In this document: piece after piece, positions 42,440 through 51,131 of the stretch
Numbering within the stretch: position 1 is the first letter of the stretch
Layout of the letters: the number at the start of each line of letters is the position of its first letter
From: Verrucomicrobiota bacterium
GTDB taxonomy: Bacteria; Verrucomicrobiota; Verrucomicrobiia; Opitutales; UBA2995
NCBI GenBank assembly: GCA_027622555.1
Contig: JAQBYJ010000032.1
Location: 1 to 51,131 of the forward strand
DNA: 51,131 nucleotides
Direction of reading: 5' to 3'
Notes under the pieces: model-generated
Told to the model about the DNA's origin: nothing
Database searches by the model: none
What the model saw: only the letters and a program-made list of their open reading frames with translations
Made by a program: the position numbers and the translations under genes

Positions 42440-42999
42440 CTACCGGGCAGGCTAAAATATGAAAAAACCGCGAATTATTGAAATGATACTTTTCGGTTAA
42501 GAGCTCTATTTTTTAGTTTCAAAAAATAATGAAATATTTTTCTTGACGCTTGTGATCCGAATTTCCAAATAGATCTCAAGAGCAACGCTTTTCAATTGTT
42601 CAACTCAATTTACCCCAAATTTAATCAGTTTATGATCCCTCGACCCTCGACCCTCGACCCTCGACCCTCGATCACCTAATCGCCTTAGAGGCGTGGTGGC
42701 GAAAAGTTGCTTCGGTCGTTGCCGGAGCCTTAACAAGAAAAGTCCGAAGTCGGCGGCACAGCCTGCCAGAGCTCATCCACAAACGGGGGCAGAGCCGTGT
42801 CGGTAAAATTGTTTCCGAAAGAGCGGTCCGGTGTACGCGCCCGGACGACAGAATGTATAACGGGCACTTTATTCGTTTATGCCCGGAAGCCGCCCTCTCA
42901 AGCGGTCGTTGTCCTCATGTGGTTCTCCAAGGACTGGTGCGCGAATGGATTTTTTCACCCAAATTCAACTTCTTTTCTCAACTTCAAATCACAGTCATT
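42440..42999. other. Gene-free debris zone upstream of the RHS locus
   Basis: AT-rich to about 42635, then the CCCTCGA array and a GC-rich stretch. A plus-strand frame stays open from about 42625 through the array into the RHS partner gene, but it has no ATG before 42853 and no recognised domain. I treat it as leader and use the start at 43000. It presumably contains the RHS operon promoter. Confidence 0.5.
42637..42671. repeat. Tandem heptamer CCCTCGA x5
   Basis: Five perfect, uninterrupted copies of the 7-bp unit CCCTCGA. There is no spacer structure, so it is not CRISPR. It is a slippage-prone microsatellite about 330 bp upstream of the RHS partner gene. Confidence 0.95.
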
Positions 43000-43743
43000 A
43001 TGAAACGTTTCCTTACGGAGTTCTATGGGCTCATTGTGTACTTATGCGCTGGATTAACCAGCTTGACGGCTCAAATAGAACACTCCACGACAAACCGGAT
43101 TGATAAACAGGCTTTCCGGGAAGAACTCGCCCTGGGAGATGTGGATAAAATTTGGCAACGTATTGAAGCCACTGCGGTTGATGAAGCGGGAGAGTCGGTG
43201 GATTCCTTCAAGCTCTGCCAGGCGTTGATGATCATGCATTCCTCTGGTGAAGTGGAAGGGTATAGAGATGTTTTTAATCCGATTACGCGGGAATTCCTGG
43301 ATGAAGTCGGAGCCTTGTTTTCCTCGGACCTGGGGCGTGAAACCCGGGATCGGGGAGAGCAGCTGGTGCTGATGGGGAAGTTGTATGAAAAATACCTGGA
43401 GGATGCGGATGAAGCGAAGGCCTGTTACCTGAAGGTGGTGAATCGTTATCTTGCCAGCCGTTCCCATCCAGTAAACGCGGAGGATTGGAAACTGGCGCTG
43501 AAGAGCGCCGAAGACCTGGAAAGCTTGAATGCCGACGAGCGCTATGCCTTCAAGCGGCTCACGCAAATGCGGGAGTTGGAGGAAATGATCGCGCACCGGA
43601 TCGCCTCCGCAAAAGAACAGGAGGCGTTCCTGGAGGCAAAGGCAACGGTGGTTCAGCCGCTGATGCCGGAATTCAACCCGGATGATGAAATTCCTTTCGA
43701 GGAACTTCGCTTGAATTTTCTCAATGAAGGGGGGCGGAAATGA
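43000..43743 (+). CDS. Exported partner protein of the RHS locus, unknown family
   Basis: A 247-aa protein with a signal peptide (about residues 1-25, ending LTAQ). The mature protein is helical and acidic, with a TPR-like helical middle (LVLMGKLYEKYLEDADEAKACYLKVV, split here as LMGKLYEKYLEDADEAKA and CYLKVV) that suggests a binding role. The last codons overlap the RHS gene by 4 bp (ATGA), so the two are translationally coupled. It could be a chaperone, adaptor or secretion factor for the RHS protein; this is inferred from coupling only. The frame extends to 42853, but the signal peptide fixes the start at 43000. Confidence 0.82.
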   Translation: MKRFLTEFYGLIVYLCAGLTSLTAQIEHSTTNRIDKQAFREELALGDVDKIWQRIEATAVDEAGESVDSFKLCQALMIMHSSGEVEGYRDVFNPITREFLDEVGALFSSDLGRETRDRGEQLVLMGKLYEKYLEDADEAKACYLKVVNRYLASRSHPVNAEDWKLALKSAEDLESLNADERYAFKRLTQMRELEEMIAHRIASAKEQEAFLEAKATVVQPLMPEFNPDDEIPFEELRLNFLNEGGRK

Positions 43744-46700
43744 GACGCTTGTTATCACAATGGACTTTGTTTGTTTTGTTGCTCGTTGCTCCGCTGGGCT
43801 CTTTGATTGCCGAAGAGTCGCGGACGGTTTTGGTACGTGCCCAGGTGCGCGGAAAAGTGGTCTCCGTCGGTGGGTCCGATTACGTTAAGTTAGCCGTGAA
43901 TGGCATAAACAAATACTTCTATTTCACCACGACTTACGATGTCACCAATTCGACGTTGTTTGAGTTCGAAGTGGATTTGAATGACGACAAGGTTATAACG
44001 GTCACGCAGGCGGGCATGTCGGATTATAGGATATATTTTAATCCGGTGATGAGTGCGGGCCTTAAGGAAAGTTTGCAAATCTTGTTGGATGACTCTCCTT
44101 TGAGAACGATAGGGAAAGCTGATATCTCGGGTTCAACGGTGGACCTCAGAGTACGGCCGGTTGCGGTTAAAGAGCCCGTCTCCGCTTTTGGTAAGGCTTA
44201 TCCCGTAATCGGTGCTACAAAAGCTGAAATACATATTGGATTGGGCCGGGCCACGATGGGTTACGGCGCTGGCAAAATCATGTTAAAGCCCGAAAATTTC
44301 GGGGCCAATAATTTGGCCACCACCGATGCCGTGTTTTCCATTTTTGATTCCACCTATGTGGACGTAACAAGTAGCGGGACCCATCGCCAGGCATTTGCTC
44401 CGGAGGGGCTGGCCGATGTGCAAGTGTTGGGCGGCGGCGGATTTGCCATAAAATTTTATACTCCCAGTCAGGTGGGCGCCAAATCGGGTGGCCTTTATCC
44501 GCTCACCGGCTCACCTGTTGCGACTTATGAGATCACGGACCCGGATACGTCCGGTGGATCAGGTGCGTCCAATGGTTTTTTTCGGGAGTTCAAACTGAAG
44601 CGAATCATAGGGGCGAAAACGGATTATCTGGAGGTCGATGAAGAATATTACGAATACGACGATGGTATGGGGGACTCCGGGGAAGGGACTACCACCTATT
44701 TGTATGACTGGTACCAATCCACCAAAGACATTGTTCACCTGCGCTACGCCAGCATTGATTCATACAATCCCGAATGGCAAATAAGTTTATTTACCCAGGA
44801 TGGCTCGGCAAATGTGAAAGATGCCAAGGAATTCACTATTGGGAATTTCGAATCGTATGCCCGGGGCTACGGTGGCGACTTATATAGCGTTTATACAAAG
44901 GATTCCAATACCACAGACCCTTCGAATCCTTATGAGGTCACTTGGGAAAGGCCGAACAACACGACCAAAACCTACCGTTTCACGGGAGCAAATCTGGATG
45001 GCGAGCCGGACACGGCCATAGGCCAGATCAAACAGGTGAAAACCACCTTCAAGGACACGGTGGACAACTTGATCACGAGCTATTCCTACTGGGAAGACGC
45101 TTCCGGCGAACTGGCCCTGCCGGACCTGATCGAAACCAAGCAGGGATCGCTGGTGGTGGGTAAAACGACCGCGGTCTACACGGAGCCGACCCTATTCAGT
45201 AAAACCATCCTCCAGAAGGTGGAGACCAACTACTCCGAATCCGGTGAGTTCTACATTACGACGGTCAAGAGCTACCGCCCGGACGATGCGGATGAACACC
45301 TTAAAGGAAAAACGATATCCATTGAGCTACCGAATGGCACCAAAACCTCTTATTTGTATCTAAAAGGCACGAGTACCTGGGACATCTCAACCTCCAAGTA
45401 CGTATTTACCCCCGGCGGATCCGGAGCGGAACGCAGGGTTGTCACATTGCATGGCAATAAGTTTAGCGGCGGCACCTATTTAAAAACCTTCGAGGGTTAC
45501 GATATCGATGACCTTGATATGGAAACGGTATTCGGGGGAACCGGTTACGGCAAGCACACTGCGGAGGATGTCTGGTATGACGCTCAAGGACGCGTGCATT
45601 ACAGAGCCACCTATGTTTATATAGGGAGTGGCAACTTCGCTCAAATTTCCCATCGCCAATACATCCATGATGGATACGGCAACCTAGTTAAAGATTATGA
45701 GTTTGTTGGTAGTCCCTTAACCGACGGACGCATCTTCCATGTGGCAACCTACGCGAACGGTCAAAAGACCAGTGAATCCGATGCCCAAGGCGTTATCACG
45801 GAATTTTACTATGACGCGTATGACCGGGTCATTGAAACCATCAAAAAAGGCATAACCGTTTCGGGCTTCGACACCCAGGGGGATATCGAAACCACCTATA
45901 CCCTGGATGTGGCTGATAATGTACTCACGGAGACCGTGCATGACCCTTCGAGCACCAAGAGCCTGACCACCACCTACACCTACGACACGGGCGGGCGGGT
46001 TAAAACAGTCAATGATCCCCGCGACCTGACCAACACCTACAGCTATACCAGTGATACGGTCACGACGGTCACCTACCCGAATAACTCCACCCGGACCACG
46101 ACCCTGCACAAGGATGGCCGTTTGTACACCATAACGGGAACGGCGCAGCCGCCCGAGACCTACACCTATGGTTATGAAAGCGGGACCGGTTTCTTGTGGT
46201 CGAAGAAAGCCTACGACTCCGGGCCTTGGAACACGGCCTACAAAGACTGGCTGGGCCGTCCCATCCGCAACGAATTCCCGACCTTCAACAGCAGTACCGT
46301 CAAGTTATTCCAGGAGTTCCAGTACGATAACACCTGGAGCCACCTGACCAAGGAGACTTACAAGTCAGGCACTTCGGTGGGTTCTGCAAGTACGGTTGGG
46401 GCAAGCAAGCTTTACTGGTACGACGGCAACGCCAAATTGACAAGAACCGCCACCGACACGAATGACAATGGCTCCATCGATTTAAGTACGGACCATAACG
46501 TGATGGAGTACTACGGTCATTTTCAAAAGTTCGGCTCCGATTGGTATGACTTTAACGGCTATGGCACCTATGGCACCGATGGTTCGAGCACGCTTAAAGG
46601 CCTTGAGGCGACCTACGCAAAAGTCTCCGGGTATACCGTCAATACCGGTAGCGATAGCACGATCGGTTACAGCTTCACCCAGAACATATTCGGTGACTAT

Positions 46701-49565
46701 ACCGAAGACTATGTCAAGGTGCGGCGTTCGCAGGCCAAGGTAATCAAGCAGCATTACATCGACCAGAATCCCAGCACTGATTTGCTGGTTACCCAGTCGG
46801 TCAACCTCAACGGACTGGATGTGGAGACGCTCAACACCGAAGGGCACCTCTTTTCGAACCACTATGACGTAATCGGCCGGCTTATCCTGACCATTGACGG
46901 ACGTGACCTGGAGACGGAGTACAGCTACGACAGCAAAGGCCAGTTGTCCTGGGTCGAGGACTCCGCCGGAGTCCGCAAAACCTACTTATACGACAGTAGT
47001 ACCGGCTTCATGTTCAAGGATACCGACGACAGTGGAATAGAAGCCCTTTATGGATACGACCTTATGGGGCGCCTCACCCACACTTATGGTCGAACACCAT
47101 ATCCGGTGAGGTATGAATACAACGATCCCATGGGCCAGATGACCAAGATGGAGACGTTTCGTACCGGGGACCTCAGTGTCTTTAGCGGCTTCAACGGAAC
47201 GAGCGACGAAACCAACTGGACCTACGATTCTTATACCGGCCTTCTTAAAAAGAAAACGGACGATAAGTTGAAATACTCGGAATACACCTATAACTCCCTT
47301 GGGCAAGTGCTAACCCGCCGGGACGGTCGCGGAGTCATTGTGACCAATGAATACTACGCTTCCACCAATCCCGGCACCGGCGGTATACCAAACGCCTTGA
47401 AGAAAGTGACCTATCCAAGTACCGGAGGCTACAACAATTCCGCCAACGTGCAATACACCCCGGATCTCTTGTACACCTACAAACGGCACGGGGGTCTCTA
47501 CGAAGTGACGGAGGGAAGTACCGGTGGTCCCGCCAACAAGCGCAACAAACGCGTGTTCAGCTACGACTCCAATTACCAGCTCTCGCAGGAGGACCTCGGC
47601 ATCTACGCCAATGACATCTATCACGAAACCAACGATGTCATCAACTACACCTACGATACCACTACAAAGGGTTTCAAAGGCCGGTCGGTGTCTTTCAACT
47701 ACCGGAACGACTCCACCTATAAAAACAGTTTCACTTACGATAGTACCAGCCGCTTGGATAAAGTCACGGCCAACCACTTCTCTGCTACTGCCTTCGACTA
47801 TACCTATAATGCGGAAGCTAACGTGGTAGATTACCTTCAATACGGCAACTACAAGCAGGACATGGTCTACCGTTCGGACAGTTACCGCTTGGACAAAATC
47901 CTGCACCTCTGGGCCAGCGATTCCTCCAAGACCCAGGAAACCCGCCTCGAATATGACAGTCATGGCCGCCGCACCTATGAGAAAATGAAAGGCACCGTGG
48001 TCACCACCCTGAGCCGTCCCGCCGCCGGCTACGCCTCCAAGGCGGAGTACGATCTGCGCAGCCAGGTGAACAAGTACGAGCGCTACAACATCGACGCCTC
48101 AACCTGGGCCATCGGCACCACGATATCGAACACCCGCTGCGACTGGGTGTTCGACAATGAAGGCAACCGCGACCACGAGACCATCGCCCCGGCATCCCTG
48201 GCCCAGTATACCGCCAATGAGCTCAACCTATACACGCTCATCCCGGGTGCCAGCCCCACCCACGACGACAACGGCAACATGCTGACCGACGGCACCCGCA
48301 CCATGGTCTACGACGCGGAAAACCGCCTGGTCAAAGTCACCATCGGGGCGAACAACTGGACCTATCAGTACGACTACATGGGACGCCGCATCACCCTCTC
48401 GGCCAACGGGACCCTGCAAAAGAAGTTCGTCTACCAGGGCTGGAACCTCATCGCCGAGACCAACTCCAGCGACACGGTGGGCCGGAAGTTTACCTGGGGG
48501 CTGGACGTCTCCACCACCATCCAGGGCGCGGGCGGCGTCGGCGGACTCCTCATGATCCAGGACGGCTCGGCGGAATATTATCCCATTTACGACGGAGCCC
48601 GCAACATTGTCGGCCTCTACAACGAGACCGGCGGTATCGCCGCCGCCTACGAGTACGATGCTTATGGACGAATCGTTAACCAATCAGGCACTTACGCGGC
48701 GTCGAACCCCTTCCGCTTCTCTACCAAATACACCGACGAAGACACAGACCTGGTCTACTACGGCCTGCGCTACTACAACCCCAAGATCGGACGCTTCATC
48801 AACCGCGACCCCATTGGAGAGTCCGGCGGCATCAACCTCAACGCCTTTGTCGGGAATAATCCGGTCAATTACTATGATTATTTGGGGTTACATCCGGATG
48901 ACCCGGAAGAGGATGAGGATTTGGATGATTATGACCTCGACCCATGGGAGGTTAATGGTTGGGACGCCATTGATACTTACCTTGAAGAGTTGGTTATCGA
49001 ATGGCTTAACCAATCTTGGGAAAATAGCATTCAAAGCAGTTACAATTATAGCTACCGCCAGACATACGAGATTGATGATTCCCAGAGTTATGATAAAACT
49101 TATACTCTTAAAACGTTTGTAGTTGACGGTGATAAAGAAGAAAGGGGAAATAAAGTTCCGTGGAATTCGGATAACAAGTACTATGTTATGCCTCCCTTAA
49201 ACTGGCCTGAAACAAACTTATCATCACTGAATGAAAAAACTCCTTTCAGCTTGTTGGGAACATTGTGGAAGGCAAATCCAAGAAAGCTGTTTATGAAGCT
49301 TCAGGCAGAAATTGGAAGAGTGGAGTATCCAATTGGAAATATTCCAGAATATACAGCTGATATTACAATAGATAAAACACTCATTGATGTGGTTTTTGGT
49401 TATACTTATTACATGGGTGGGCCTTCAGAGGAATTACCTTATCAAACTAGTTTCGAAATCAGTGGCTTAAATAATGGCCTTTGGGGAAACATTGCCAATG
49501 AAAGCCCTTATTCTGTCGATATTTGGACAGTGTTTGAACCAGTATTTATTGAAAAAGAATATTGA
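43740..49565 (+). CDS. RHS/YD-repeat protein, candidate polymorphic toxin
   Basis: A 1941-aa protein with a Sec signal peptide (about 1-25) and an N-terminal region of ~500 residues without clear repeats. From about residue 600 to 1650 come YD repeats (e.g. YDAYDRVIE, YDSKGQLSWVED, YDYMGRRITLS). The RHS core ends in KIGRFINRDPIGESGG near residue 1690 and YYDYLGL near 1716. The final ~225 residues, beginning HPDDPEEDEDLDDYDLD, are a different domain: acidic, then beta-rich, and strikingly more AT-rich than the core. In RHS toxins the core forms a shell around a cleaved C-terminal effector. I do not recognise the effector. No PAAR or VgrG domain is visible; the signal peptide suggests surface display or secretion by another route. 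Confidence 0.92.
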   Translation: MRRLLSQWTLFVLLLVAPLGSLIAEESRTVLVRAQVRGKVVSVGGSDYVKLAVNGINKYFYFTTTYDVTNSTLFEFEVDLNDDKVITVTQAGMSDYRIYFNPVMSAGLKESLQILLDDSPLRTIGKADISGSTVDLRVRPVAVKEPVSAFGKAYPVIGATKAEIHIGLGRATMGYGAGKIMLKPENFGANNLATTDAVFSIFDSTYVDVTSSGTHRQAFAPEGLADVQVLGGGGFAIKFYTPSQVGAKSGGLYPLTGSPVATYEITDPDTSGGSGASNGFFREFKLKRIIGAKTDYLEVDEEYYEYDDGMGDSGEGTTTYLYDWYQSTKDIVHLRYASIDSYNPEWQISLFTQDGSANVKDAKEFTIGNFESYARGYGGDLYSVYTKDSNTTDPSNPYEVTWERPNNTTKTYRFTGANLDGEPDTAIGQIKQVKTTFKDTVDNLITSYSYWEDASGELALPDLIETKQGSLVVGKTTAVYTEPTLFSKTILQKVETNYSESGEFYITTVKSYRPDDADEHLKGKTISIELPNGTKTSYLYLKGTSTWDISTSKYVFTPGGSGAERRVVTLHGNKFSGGTYLKTFEGYDIDDLDMETVFGGTGYGKHTAEDVWYDAQGRVHYRATYVYIGSGNFAQISHRQYIHDGYGNLVKDYEFVGSPLTDGRIFHVATYANGQKTSESDAQGVITEFYYDAYDRVIETIKKGITVSGFDTQGDIETTYTLDVADNVLTETVHDPSSTKSLTTTYTYDTGGRVKTVNDPRDLTNTYSYTSDTVTTVTYPNNSTRTTTLHKDGRLYTITGTAQPPETYTYGYESGTGFLWSKKAYDSGPWNTAYKDWLGRPIRNEFPTFNSSTVKLFQEFQYDNTWSHLTKETYKSGTSVGSASTVGASKLYWYDGNAKLTRTATDTNDNGSIDLSTDHNVMEYYGHFQKFGSDWYDFNGYGTYGTDGSSTLKGLEATYAKVSGYTVNTGSDSTIGYSFTQNIFGDYTEDYVKVRRSQAKVIKQHYIDQNPSTDLLVTQSVNLNGLDVETLNTEGHLFSNHYDVIGRLILTIDGRDLETEYSYDSKGQLSWVEDSAGVRKTYLYDSSTGFMFKDTDDSGIEALYGYDLMGRLTHTYGRTPYPVRYEYNDPMGQMTKMETFRTGDLSVFSGFNGTSDETNWTYDSYTGLLKKKTDDKLKYSEYTYNSLGQVLTRRDGRGVIVTNEYYASTNPGTGGIPNALKKVTYPSTGGYNNSANVQYTPDLLYTYKRHGGLYEVTEGSTGGPANKRNKRVFSYDSNYQLSQEDLGIYANDIYHETNDVINYTYDTTTKGFKGRSVSFNYRNDSTYKNSFTYDSTSRLDKVTANHFSATAFDYTYNAEANVVDYLQYGNYKQDMVYRSDSYRLDKILHLWASDSSKTQETRLEYDSHGRRTYEKMKGTVVTTLSRPAAGYASKAEYDLRSQVNKYERYNIDASTWAIGTTISNTRCDWVFDNEGNRDHETIAPASLAQYTANELNLYTLIPGASPTHDDNGNMLTDGTRTMVYDAENRLVKVTIGANNWTYQYDYMGRRITLSANGTLQKKFVYQGWNLIAETNSSDTVGRKFTWGLDVSTTIQGAGGVGGLLMIQDGSAEYYPIYDGARNIVGLYNETGGIAAAYEYDAYGRIVNQSGTYAASNPFRFSTKYTDEDTDLVYYGLRYYNPKIGRFINRDPIGESGGINLNAFVGNNPVNYYDYLGLHPDDPEEDEDLDDYDLDPWEVNGWDAIDTYLEELVIEWLNQSWENSIQSSYNYSYRQTYEIDDSQSYDKTYTLKTFVVDGDKEERGNKVPWNSDNKYYVMPPLNWPETNLSSLNEKTPFSLLGTLWKANPRKLFMKLQAEIGRVEYPIGNIPEYTADITIDKTLIDVVFGYTYYMGGPSEELPYQTSFEISGLNNGLWGNIANESPYSVDIWTVFEPVFIEKEY

Positions 49566-49581
49566 GAAAGATCTGAAATTT

Positions 49582-50055
49582 ATGAAGTCTTTGTTTAGCT
49601 TGTTAGTGTTGCTTACTCTCTTGTACTTCTTGGGATGCTCTGAGGGTTTTGATTATTACGAGGTTACGTCAGTAGCAATGTCCCCTAGTTATTTTCCAGG
49701 CGAGGTGGTCAAAATCTCTCAAAGAGATCTTGGATCATTGGAGAGATTTGATGTTGTATTAATTGAAATTCCTGTGACAAAACTAAATGGGTTATTTAGG
49801 GTTCTGGGCCTTCCAGGAGAAAAAATTCATTTTCAAAATAATGGCATTTTGATTGATGATGAAATAATACCACTTCCTAACTCGATTGAATTTGTGCCTA
49901 ATATTAAGGCTAATCAATACTACGCCATTGAAACTGAGGTTTCTATTTCTGAAAATCGCATTTTTGTGATCGGTGATAATATGAAGAATTCCAGGGATAG
50001 TCGCACTTTTGGCTTAGTGCCGTACGAGAATATTTTAGGAGTAGCGGTTGAATAA
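49582..50055 (+). CDS. Signal peptidase I-like putative lipoprotein without catalytic dyad; immunity candidate
   Basis: A 157-aa protein starting with a lipoprotein-type signal (Cys19 in YFLGC). The rest follows the S26 signal peptidase fold: VTSVAMSPSYFPGEVV (box B region), RVLGLPGEKIHFQNNGILID (box D region) and GDNMKNSRDSRTFGLVP (box E). The catalytic Ser that precedes the Met of box B is Ala32 (codon GCA), and the Lys that precedes Arg-Val in box D is Phe72, so it should not be an active peptidase. It lies 16 bp after the RHS stop, the classical immunity-gene place, with GAGAAAG as ribosome site, and is AT-rich like the RHS C-terminus. Confidence 0.82.
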   Translation: MKSLFSLLVLLTLLYFLGCSEGFDYYEVTSVAMSPSYFPGEVVKISQRDLGSLERFDVVLIEIPVTKLNGLFRVLGLPGEKIHFQNNGILIDDEIIPLPNSIEFVPNIKANQYYAIETEVSISENRIFVIGDNMKNSRDSRTFGLVPYENILGVAVE

Positions 50056-50080
50056 TCCTGAAAAGTATAAAAAAGAAAAG

Positions 50081-50144
50081 GAGACCGGCGGCATCGCCGC
50101 CGCCTACGAGTACGACGCCTTCGGCAGAATCACCACTCAATCAA
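50081..50144 (+). pseudogene. Displaced RHS-core fragment
   Basis: These 64 bp match 48624-48687 of the RHS gene with about a dozen differences and encode ETGGIAAAYEYDAFGRITTQ, a piece of the RHS core. The frame then continues through the direct repeat to a stop near 50212. The fragment marks an old insertion or displacement of a second RHS tip. It is the hallmark of orphan RHS tip modules. Confidence 0.88.
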
Positions 50145-50213
50145 GAGCTTCCAATAGGGTCAATAGTCAATTGTCAAGATGCGAACGGAACTTGTCAATA
50201 ATGGAGATATGAC
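50145..50213. repeat. 69-bp direct repeat, copy 1
   Basis: Identical over 69 bp to 51063-51131. It contains three near-tandem heptamers GTCAATA GTCAATT GTCAAGA at 50159-50179. The two copies are 918 bp apart and bracket the orphan module. Confidence 0.97.
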
Positions 50214-50260
50214 CCCATTGGCTCTCTGACCCCATTGGCTCTCTGACCCCATTGGCTCTC
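50210..50260. repeat. 17-bp tandem repeat x3 carrying a DPIG-like codon string
   Basis: Three perfect copies of TGACCCCATTGGCTCTC. The first overlaps the end of the 69-bp repeat. GACCCCATTGG is also the DNA that encodes the DPIG motif of the RHS core at 48807, so the unit may be a remnant of a core end that expanded by slippage. Since 17 is not a multiple of 3, each unit shifts the frame. Confidence 0.93.
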
Positions 50261-50540
50261 TTCTGGAGATCCAAATTACCGTCCTGTAAAAACTCCTCAG
50301 CAAACAAGAATCGAGCAGGTTGAAAAGAATACTAATAATGCTCCAACGGAAAGAAAACAGACTCCTAGCAATCCTTCTCCTAAACCCAAGCCATCGCCTG
50401 AACCGGACTCAGGTCCATCAATTCAACCAATTCCGTGGTGGTTAAGAGTGCCTTTACCTCCTATTATTCTCGGTCCGCCCCAATTTATAATTATGCCTGA
50501 TCCTAATAAATACTTGAATGAAGAAGATCTTCGAACATAG
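50247..50540 (+). pseudogene. Orphan RHS C-terminal tip, proline-rich, no start codon
   Basis: An open frame of 97 codons from the TGA at 50244-50246 to the TAG at 50538-50540. It encodes SGDPNYRPVKTPQQTRIEQV, then a Pro/Lys/Ser-rich stretch (PSNPSPKPKPSPEPDSGPS) and WWLRVPLPPIILGPPQFIIM. It has no ATG/GTG near its beginning and sits directly after DPIG-coding repeats, one base out of frame with them. This is what a silent RHS tip that needs recombination into a core would look like. The family is not recognised. Confidence 0.65.
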
Positions 50541-50647
50541 ATTGCTCGAAAATGATAGCAGCAATACTCGACGGGATTTTTCCATTGATTTGGAGAATAT
50601 TCAGATTGTTTTTCAGAGATTATCATACTTTCAGGAGCGGAGAATGT

Positions 50648-51028
50648 ATGGCATACGGCTCTTCCGATTTTATTGATGATTTTAAATACAGTCTTAGTTT
50701 TTTAGAATCGATTGATAGTGAACTGGTAACAGCTATCAGGCATACTAATTTTACATTAATTGACGAAAGGACGCACGGGAAAGTCGGTAGGACTGCATGC
50801 AAGTATTTTCCAGTTTACAGATATATCTTACAGGATGGGTCCATGGAGTTGGCTTGTTACATTGTCGCGTGTTATTTCTATTCAATAGAGATTGATAATT
50901 TAAGCATAAACAAGCGGCTCTTCAAAAGAAAAGAGTTTAATCTTTCTAATACCTATTCATTGGAGTGGATGAGAAAAAACCAACTTATGGGAAGTGTTTA
51001 TGCTCAACTGTCCAAGTGGCCGGTATGA
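50648..51028 (+). CDS. Small protein of unknown function, second immunity candidate
   Basis: A 126-aa protein starting MAYGSSDFIDDFKYSL with a strong ribosome site AGGAG 10 bp upstream (50633-50637). The frame continues upstream to an ATG at 50552 (158 aa) but that start has no ribosome site. The protein is rich in aromatic and charged residues (KYFPVYRYIL, CYIVACYFYSIEID) and has no known motif. It follows the orphan RHS tip and is AT-rich, as immunity genes behind orphan tips usually are; the role is inferred from position. Confidence 0.65.
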   Translation: MAYGSSDFIDDFKYSLSFLESIDSELVTAIRHTNFTLIDERTHGKVGRTACKYFPVYRYILQDGSMELACYIVACYFYSIEIDNLSINKRLFKRKEFNLSNTYSLEWMRKNQLMGSVYAQLSKWPV

Positions 51029-51062: not shown

Positions 51063-51131
51063 GAGCTTCCAATAGGGTCAATAGTCAATTGTCAAGATGC
51101 GAACGGAACTTGTCAATAATGGAGATATGAC
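51063..51131. repeat. 69-bp direct repeat, copy 2 (runs off the window)
   Basis: Identical to 50145-50213 up to the last base of the window, so the true repeat may be longer and further tip modules may follow. Confidence 0.97.

What the first reader, a model, noticed from the sequence alone, without database searches (positions are those of the whole stretch)
49582..50055. Signal-peptidase-like lipoprotein with a dead active site in the RHS immunity position
Boxes B, D and E of signal peptidase I are readable, but the nucleophilic Ser is Ala32 and the general-base Lys is Phe72. An N-terminal lipobox replaces the usual membrane anchor. It sits 16 bp behind the RHS toxin-like gene and shares its AT-rich base composition. 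A catalytically dead protease fold acting as an immunity protein would be new to me. A possible model is that it binds the toxin tip in the periplasm or shields the genuine signal peptidase from it.
Basis: partly seen in the sequence, partly recalled or inferred. Interest (0 to 1): 0.85.

Follow-up and report, generated by a model that had tools for sequence, protein, structure and literature searches.

The report
Dead signal-peptidase lipoprotein behind RHS toxin
A bacterium carries, directly behind a large toxin-like gene, a small fat-anchored protein that is built like the enzyme that trims exported proteins but has lost its cutting residues; it may protect the cell from that toxin, and it has relatives elsewhere, some of them in integrons.

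Summary
P0001 (49582-50055, 157 aa) is a full-length Peptidase_S26 protein (Pfam 6.7e-25; model closest to dead SipA, Z 14.8) with Ser->Ala32, Lys->Phe72 and a lipobox at Cys19. It starts 16 bp behind an RHS gene. GC is 37%, as in the RHS tail (38%); RHS-core sequence (60-64% GC) bounds the pair on both sides.
The immunity reading is partly supported. In this order 44 of 50 RHS tails read are followed tightly by a small ORF, 30 of 44 with a hydrophobic N-terminus (control 16 of 52); P0001 fits. But its family is not an RHS family: of 19 genomes in which I read lipidated S26 proteins (22 proteins), only this one shows RHS sequence in the flanks read. Twenty lack Lys, six lack both residues, two keep the dyad. 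In five genomes they lie in or beside integrons. The RHS tail has no detectable relative, so pairing and toxicity are untested.
Best reading: a lipidated pseudo-signal-peptidase of an accessory family, recruited as envelope immunity protein and acting by binding (confidence 0.5). Mimicry of the real signal peptidase is not excluded.

The parts
43740..49565 (+). RHS/YD-repeat gene, 1941 aa, hydrophobic signal-like N-terminal stretch (by eye)
   Evidence: RHS_repeat, Rhs_assc_core, YD repeats
48654..48890 (+). RHS-associated core, the conserved end of the shell
   Evidence: TIGR03696 4e-24; protein residues 1639-1717
48891..49562 (+). Variable C-terminal tail of the RHS protein (224 aa), presumed toxin tip; no known family
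   Evidence: 38.2% GC; no Pfam, PADLOC or PDB match; no credible relative
49582..50055 (+). P0001, lipobox-bearing signal-peptidase-like protein with dead dyad; presumed immunity protein
49636..49638 (+). Cys19 of the lipobox (YFLGC)
   Evidence: invariant in A2 and A4
49675..49677 (+). Ala32 in place of the catalytic Ser
49795..49797 (+). Phe72 in place of the general-base Lys
49972..50004 (+). Box E (GDN...DSR), retained
   Evidence: conserved columns
50078..50150 (+). Fragment of RHS core, 78% identical to 48621-48693 of the same gene: likely remnant of a displaced tip unit
   Evidence: GC of 50080-50145 is 0.636
50247..50540 (+). Open stretch, possibly the end of an orphan RHS tail
   Evidence: translation only
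50552..51028 (+). P0003, 158 aa, next small gene, unknown family
   Evidence: no match

Best explanation
P0001 is a lipid-anchored signal-peptidase-fold protein that cannot cut. It comes from an accessory family of lipidated S26 proteins, some integron-borne, and sits as the immunity gene of the RHS tip unit. Shown here: S26 sequence and predicted fold, lost Ser and Lys, lipobox, place inside an RHS tip unit bounded by core copies, and agreement with what follows other RHS tails of the order. Inferred: it is exported and lipidated; both partners meet in the envelope, since the RHS protein also has a signal-like N-terminus; P0001 protects the producer and its kin by binding the RHS tail, probably with the surface or cleft that signal peptidases use for peptides, as proposed for the dead SipA.
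For: Full-length S26 matches. AlphaFold model closest to dead SipA 4n31 (Z 14.8, rmsd 2.2, 122 aligned), then active SpsB (Z 13.2) and LepB (Z 12.8). Dyad lost. 16 bp behind the RHS stop; of 44 RHS tails of the order with a following small ORF, 41 have it within 35 bp, 30 have a hydrophobic N-terminus (16 of 52 in control ORF pairs) and 7 a lipobox (2 of 52). GC shared with the RHS tail and unlike core sequence on both sides; core fragment downstream. P0001 is the only ORF over 100 aa between the tail and the core fragment.
Against: One association only: 18 of 19 genomes with a lipidated S26 relative show no RHS sequence in the flanks read, some of which are short. No ORF of 90 aa or more in the 40 other RHS loci matches the S26 profile (L186-L225 are absent from the matches; shorter ORFs were not scored). 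The RHS tail has no known toxin domain. No binding, toxicity or localisation data. The best structure model has mean pLDDT 74.6, but the other four have only 47-55. The membrane-target count uses a hydropathy rule and RHS loci that I picked from the listed hits, several from one genome.
Confidence: 0.5

Rival explanations
1. P0001 is cargo, not cognate immunity: an accessory envelope protein of the lipidated S26 family (SipA-like binding or scaffold role) that landed behind the RHS tail, perhaps through cassette traffic.
For: Relatives stand in varied neighbourhoods (gene names by eye from translations): between an AMP-ligase-like and a modA-like gene, beside alaS-like and aminotransferase-like genes, behind a gatB-like gene, near ureC-like genes, and in integron arrays. 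The own genome holds integron integrases.
Against: The gene sits 16 bp behind the tail, shares its composition, and is enclosed with it between RHS-core copies. 16 bp leave no room for an integron site between tail and gene.
Confidence: 0.3
2. Target mimicry: the RHS tail attacks or blocks signal peptidase I in the envelope, and P0001 is a lipidated dead copy that soaks it up.
For: P0001 copies the scaffold and box E of the essential enzyme while its dyad is gone. Lys-less lipidated forms are scattered on the tree: well-supported branches force at least four gains or losses of that label, as a recurrent decoy could produce.
Against: No evidence that the tail touches signal peptidase; 16 of 22 lipidated relatives keep the Ser and 2 keep the whole dyad, which a decoy would not need; relatives exist without a toxin gene seen beside them.
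Confidence: 0.12
3. P0001 still cleaves peptides, with other residues.
For: Two lipidated relatives in or beside integrons keep Ser and Lys, so lipidated active enzymes probably exist.
Against: P0001 has neither nucleophile nor base; Lys is replaced by Phe, Met, Ser, Leu, Ala or Arg in 20 of 22 lipidated relatives (two readings corrected by eye).
Confidence: 0.03
4. P0001 is a decaying pseudogene.
For: Both catalytic residues lost; the neighbourhood holds broken RHS pieces.
Against: Full-length open frame with intact lipobox and the invariant columns of its relatives. No close homologue was found for a rate test.
Confidence: 0.05

Closest known systems
SipA of Streptococcus pyogenes (PDB 4n31; PMC4049620: abstract, the section on missing catalytic residues and part 1 of 2 of the discussion read)
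   Same: Signal peptidase I fold without the catalytic Ser and Lys (Asp and Gly there); best structural match of the P0001 model; proposed by its authors to act by binding
   Different: Needed for pilus assembly, in operons with a class B sortase. P0001 has a lipobox, lies behind an RHS gene, and is 18% identical over the aligned part.
Signal peptidase I (LepB/SpsB; Pfam PF10502, NCBIfam TIGR02227)
   Same: Fold, conserved boxes, scores over the curated cut-offs
   Different: Ser and Lys lost; lipobox in place of a transmembrane anchor
Immunity proteins of polymorphic toxins, notably Imm65 (PMC3482391: passages, and part 1 of 2 of the section 'Immunity proteins')
   Same: Small gene directly behind a variable toxin tail; Imm65 is described there as the only immunity protein of that collection that appears to be lipobox-anchored
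   Different: 'signal peptidase' and 'S26' do not occur in the held part of that text (300,000 of 357,715 characters); Imm65 is tied to Tox-JAB-1
Integron gene cassettes
   Same: Lipidated S26 relatives lie in or beside integrons in five genomes of the same phylum
   Different: No attC site was recognised by eye at the window copy, and no integrase match is listed on its contig

Membership tests
Signal peptidase I (S26) | S26 fold and sequence boxes | tested here: met
Signal peptidase I (S26) | Catalytic Ser and Lys | tested here: not met
   Ala32, Phe72; so it is not filed as an active signal peptidase although TIGR02227, an equivalog model, would name it one
Signal peptidase I (S26) | N-terminal transmembrane anchor | tested here: not met
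   Lipobox with Cys19, 13 residues before Ala32; inferred from sequence
SipA-like pilus assembly factor | S26 fold without Ser and Lys | tested here: met
SipA-like pilus assembly factor | Gene in a sortase/pilin cluster | not tested
   No family search for sortases or pilins was run
RHS immunity protein | Directly behind the variable RHS tail, same strand | tested here: met
   gap 16 bp; what follows other RHS tails of the order
RHS immunity protein | Moves with the tail as one unit | tested here: inconclusive
   Shared GC and flanking core copies, but no relative of the tail was found with which to test pairing
RHS immunity protein | Neutralises the cognate toxin | not testable with these tools
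   needs co-expression
Bacterial lipoprotein | Signal with lipobox, Cys conserved in relatives | tested here: met
   lipidation itself not testable
Integron cassette (window copy) | attC site directly behind the gene, previous attC before it | tested here: inconclusive
   None seen by eye; 16 bp upstream gap; no attC model was run. Against four own-genome stretches with integrase matches the window end gave only two short hits, in the genome-wide repeat

The most novel reading that the evidence does not exclude
Decoy immunity: an RHS toxin tail that attacks the essential signal peptidase in the envelope is neutralised by a lipid-anchored dead copy of that enzyme. The wider lipidated S26 family, partly stored in integrons, would then be a mobile stock of decoys against signal-peptidase-directed weapons (toxin tails or natural inhibitors).
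Probability: 0.1. Interest if true: 0.88.

Novelty: new variant of a known kind. Interest (0 to 1): 0.6.

Why it matters
An immunity protein made from a dead house-keeping protease would show where polymorphic immunity genes can come from and would hint at the envelope target of the toxin. Independently, lipidated S26 proteins with and without the dyad occur in three phyla and in integrons, and the standard model would name them signal peptidase I; I saw no paper on them in the listings of my searches (one open-access library, listings capped). In the RHS loci read, genes behind RHS tails are mostly membrane-targeted, which suggests that RHS weapons of this order act in the envelope, whereas the 2012 survey found immunity proteins mostly cytoplasmic (PMC3482391).

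Tried and rejected
Chance match: rejected. Only signal peptidase of the cell: rejected, a KR-type enzyme is on C10. RHS-bound family: rejected by the neighbourhoods. My interim claim that no lipidated member has Lys was overturned by the class search: 2 of 22 have it; the first 18 were found with Lys-less queries, so that count is biased. Single origin of the Lys-less lipoproteins: not supported; starred branches force at least four gains or losses of the label, and P0001 itself has no well-supported place (81/66 and 92/69).

Led nowhere: relatives in viral contigs; relatives of the RHS tail in 177 genomes (own genome plus one chance-like hit, E 0.003, in what looks like a PEP-CTERM protein), in 387 genomes of the phylum (own genome only) and in plasmids; PDB, PADLOC and Pfam for the tail; structure of the tail. 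P0001 hits 30 plasmid records, all under 60% identity; of the 20 listed, 16 are annotated as signal peptidases and 4 bear no annotation there.

Corrections by eye: the HMM or the pattern misread the Lys column in G584 (Arg by gapless count), in the second Halomicronema copy (Ser) and in L060/L091 (Lys present), and missed the lipobox in L047, L079, L119, L121 and L123; I used the corrected readings. Two transmembrane proteins whose anchors happen to fit the lipobox pattern (L057, L254) were not counted as lipoproteins. The 22 proteins are those I read; not every match listed was fetched, and lists were capped, so the family is probably larger. The RHS detector used on neighbourhoods found 7 of 8 known RHS loci tried as controls (L224 missed). 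Near-identical copies in G544 (3) and G542 (2) count once each. Of the RHS tails in the 40 loci, those with under 250 bases left were left out, giving 50; the search for a following start was limited to 35 bases before and 150 after the stop. An earlier, looser rule for hydrophobic starts gave 36 of 44; the stricter one (30 of 44) is reported.

Full report
What is there. The window is one whole contig (C32) of a 6.0 Mb draft genome in 238 contigs. Close to the contig's end lies an RHS gene of 1941 codons (43740-49565), and 16 bp behind its stop a 157-codon gene, P0001. P0001 matches Peptidase_S26 over nearly its whole length and signal peptidase I of NCBIfam over its cut-off. Ala32 stands where the nucleophilic Ser belongs and Phe72 where the Lys belongs; GDN...DSR of box E is kept. 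A hydrophobic start ends in YFLGC, and that Cys is invariant in both 10-row alignments of relatives. The AlphaFold model (10-row alignment; mean pLDDT 74.6, pTM 0.65, the other four models clearly worse) is matched best by SipA, the dead signal-peptidase homologue of Streptococcus (Z 14.8, rmsd 2.2 over 122 residues), then by SpsB (Z 13.2) and E. coli LepB (1t7d Z 12.8, 1b12 Z 12.0) (Foldseek lists the same families with SpsB first). The same genome has a KR-type signal peptidase on C10.

Is P0001 in an immunity position? RHS tails and their immunity genes form exchangeable units, often followed by remnants of older units (recalled knowledge of RHS loci). Here a 73-nt stretch at 50078-50150 is 78% identical to the core region of the same gene at 48621-48693. 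The low-GC tail (0.382) and P0001 (0.369) are thus enclosed between high-GC core sequence (0.599 for 48000-48890; 0.636 for 50080-50145). An open stretch (50247-50540), perhaps a tail remnant, and another small gene, P0003 (50552-51028), follow. I then asked what follows other RHS genes of the order. RHS cores occur in 72 of 177 genomes; the window's genome has only this one. I fetched 40 loci picked from the listed hits and scored 50 tails with enough sequence left. A small ORF follows 44 of 50, within 35 bp in 41; in 30 of these 44 the first 45 residues hold a hydrophobic stretch, against 16 of 52 ORFs following ordinary long ORFs (Fisher p 4e-4); 7 of 44 against 2 of 52 have a lipobox. P0001 (gap 16 bp, hydropathy 2.47, lipobox) fits this class. 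No ORF of 90 aa or more in those 40 loci matches the S26 profile (absent from the matches).

What family is it? Searches with P0001 and with alignments of its relatives covered 177 relatives, 273 genomes of the order, 387 of the phylum, 384 of the class (samples overlap, lists capped) and one scan of a collection of 84,980 species genomes (11 loci). Twenty-two distinct lipobox-bearing S26 proteins in 19 genomes were read: eleven genomes, own genome included; five named genomes (Oscillatoria, Halomicronema with two copies, two Leptolyngbya, one Acidobacteria bacterium); and three from the class search. Lys is absent in 20 of 22; Ser is kept in 16, Ala in 4, Gly in 2; both are gone in 6, P0001 among them. 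Two, from G733 and G739, keep Ser and Lys, so the dead state is probably a repeated loss inside or beside lipidated enzymes. In the tree (58 rows) those two group with Lys-less lipoproteins of G544 and G783 (95/84), the cyanobacterial lipoproteins group with a Lys-less transmembrane protein of a cyanobacterium (99/97), and P0001 has no firm place. Some transmembrane S26 proteins have lost Lys too, so the loss is not confined to lipidated forms.

Where do the relatives live? Only P0001 was seen beside an RHS gene: in the other 18 genomes a detector that found 7 of 8 known RHS loci found none in the flanks read, which ran from 0.1 to 12.6 kb a side, short where contigs were short. In five genomes the relatives lie in or beside integrons. 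In G544 two copies follow an integron integrase (344 bits; cut-off 265) within repeats of attC type; a third copy lies elsewhere, and I did not test that place for attC sites. In G542 attC-like repeats lie before the gene and through the array behind it, and an integrase fragment below the cut-off is on the contig. In G415 attC-like repeats flank the copy on C159; integrases are on C68 and C165, the latter 28 kb from the second copy. In G733 two copies lie in an array behind an integrase (418 bits) with CTAAC...GTTAG sites. In G739 one lies beside an integrase (420 bits), without attC-like repeats found. The reading of the repeats as attC is by shape, from recalled knowledge; no attC model was run. 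The window's genome also has two full integron integrases (C59, C60), but nothing ties them to P0001.

How it most likely works. Both gene products carry export-type N-termini, so they would meet in the envelope. With no nucleophile and no base, P0001 can only bind. In SipA the authors found the peptide-binding cleft conserved and proposed a binding role, though they could not show binding in vitro (PMC4049620). I propose that P0001 binds the RHS tail and keeps it from its target at the membrane surface (inference; confidence 0.5). That the target is signal peptidase itself, with P0001 as decoy, is the boldest reading left open. Against immunity stand the single association and the relatives away from RHS genes; then P0001 would be an accessory envelope protein caught behind an RHS gene (0.3).

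Known and new. Dead signal peptidases are known (SipA), lipobox immunity proteins are known but were rare in the 2012 survey (Imm65; PMC3482391), and immunity genes behind RHS tails are a rule. Not met in my paper searches (listings only, capped, apart from the two papers read in part) is an S26 protein in an immunity position, or lipidated or integron-borne S26 proteins. The library is open-access only. I file the finding as a new variant of a known kind.

Noticed in passing
window 50145-50262 and 51063-51131: A repeat (two 69-nt copies, 100% identical; after the first, 17-bp units TGACCCCATTGGCTCTC about three times). A query covering it (50056-50300) matches 37 places of the genome, nearly all in this part; REP-like by look. 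The contig ends inside it.
   Followed up: partly
RHS loci L186-L225: Genes directly behind RHS tails in this order are mostly membrane-targeted (30 of 44; control 16 of 52), 7 of 44 with lipobox; several tails hold HExxH-like or JAB-like motifs by eye.
   Followed up: partly
L255 5949-6470 and 8590-9144; L256 1947-2441: Lipidated S26 proteins with intact Ser/Lys in or beside integrons; the L255 array also holds a Lys-less copy.
   Followed up: partly
L118 7938-8519, L119 4084-4653 and 5194-5763, L121 7680-8300: Cyanobacterial lipidated S26 proteins that have lost Lys, near a urease alpha-subunit-like gene (named by eye).
   Followed up: no
NCBIfam TIGR02227: All 10 members of A4 match this signal peptidase I model at E <= 0.001 although none has the dyad; P0001 scores 81.8 bits over a cut-off of 47. 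The model over-names at least P0001.
   Followed up: partly
window 50247-51028: Possible orphan RHS tail remnant and small gene P0003 of unknown family behind P0001.
   Followed up: partly
L089 4139-4636 (G174): An S26 protein without lipobox that has His in place of Lys, as in eukaryotic-type enzymes (recalled).
   Followed up: no
G000:C59:22733-23668 and C60:33553-34488: Two full integron integrases in the window's own genome, plus fragments on other contigs; no attC-like repeat family was found next to the C59 copy.
   Followed up: partly
window 42637-42671: CCCTCGA repeated five times without change.
   Followed up: no
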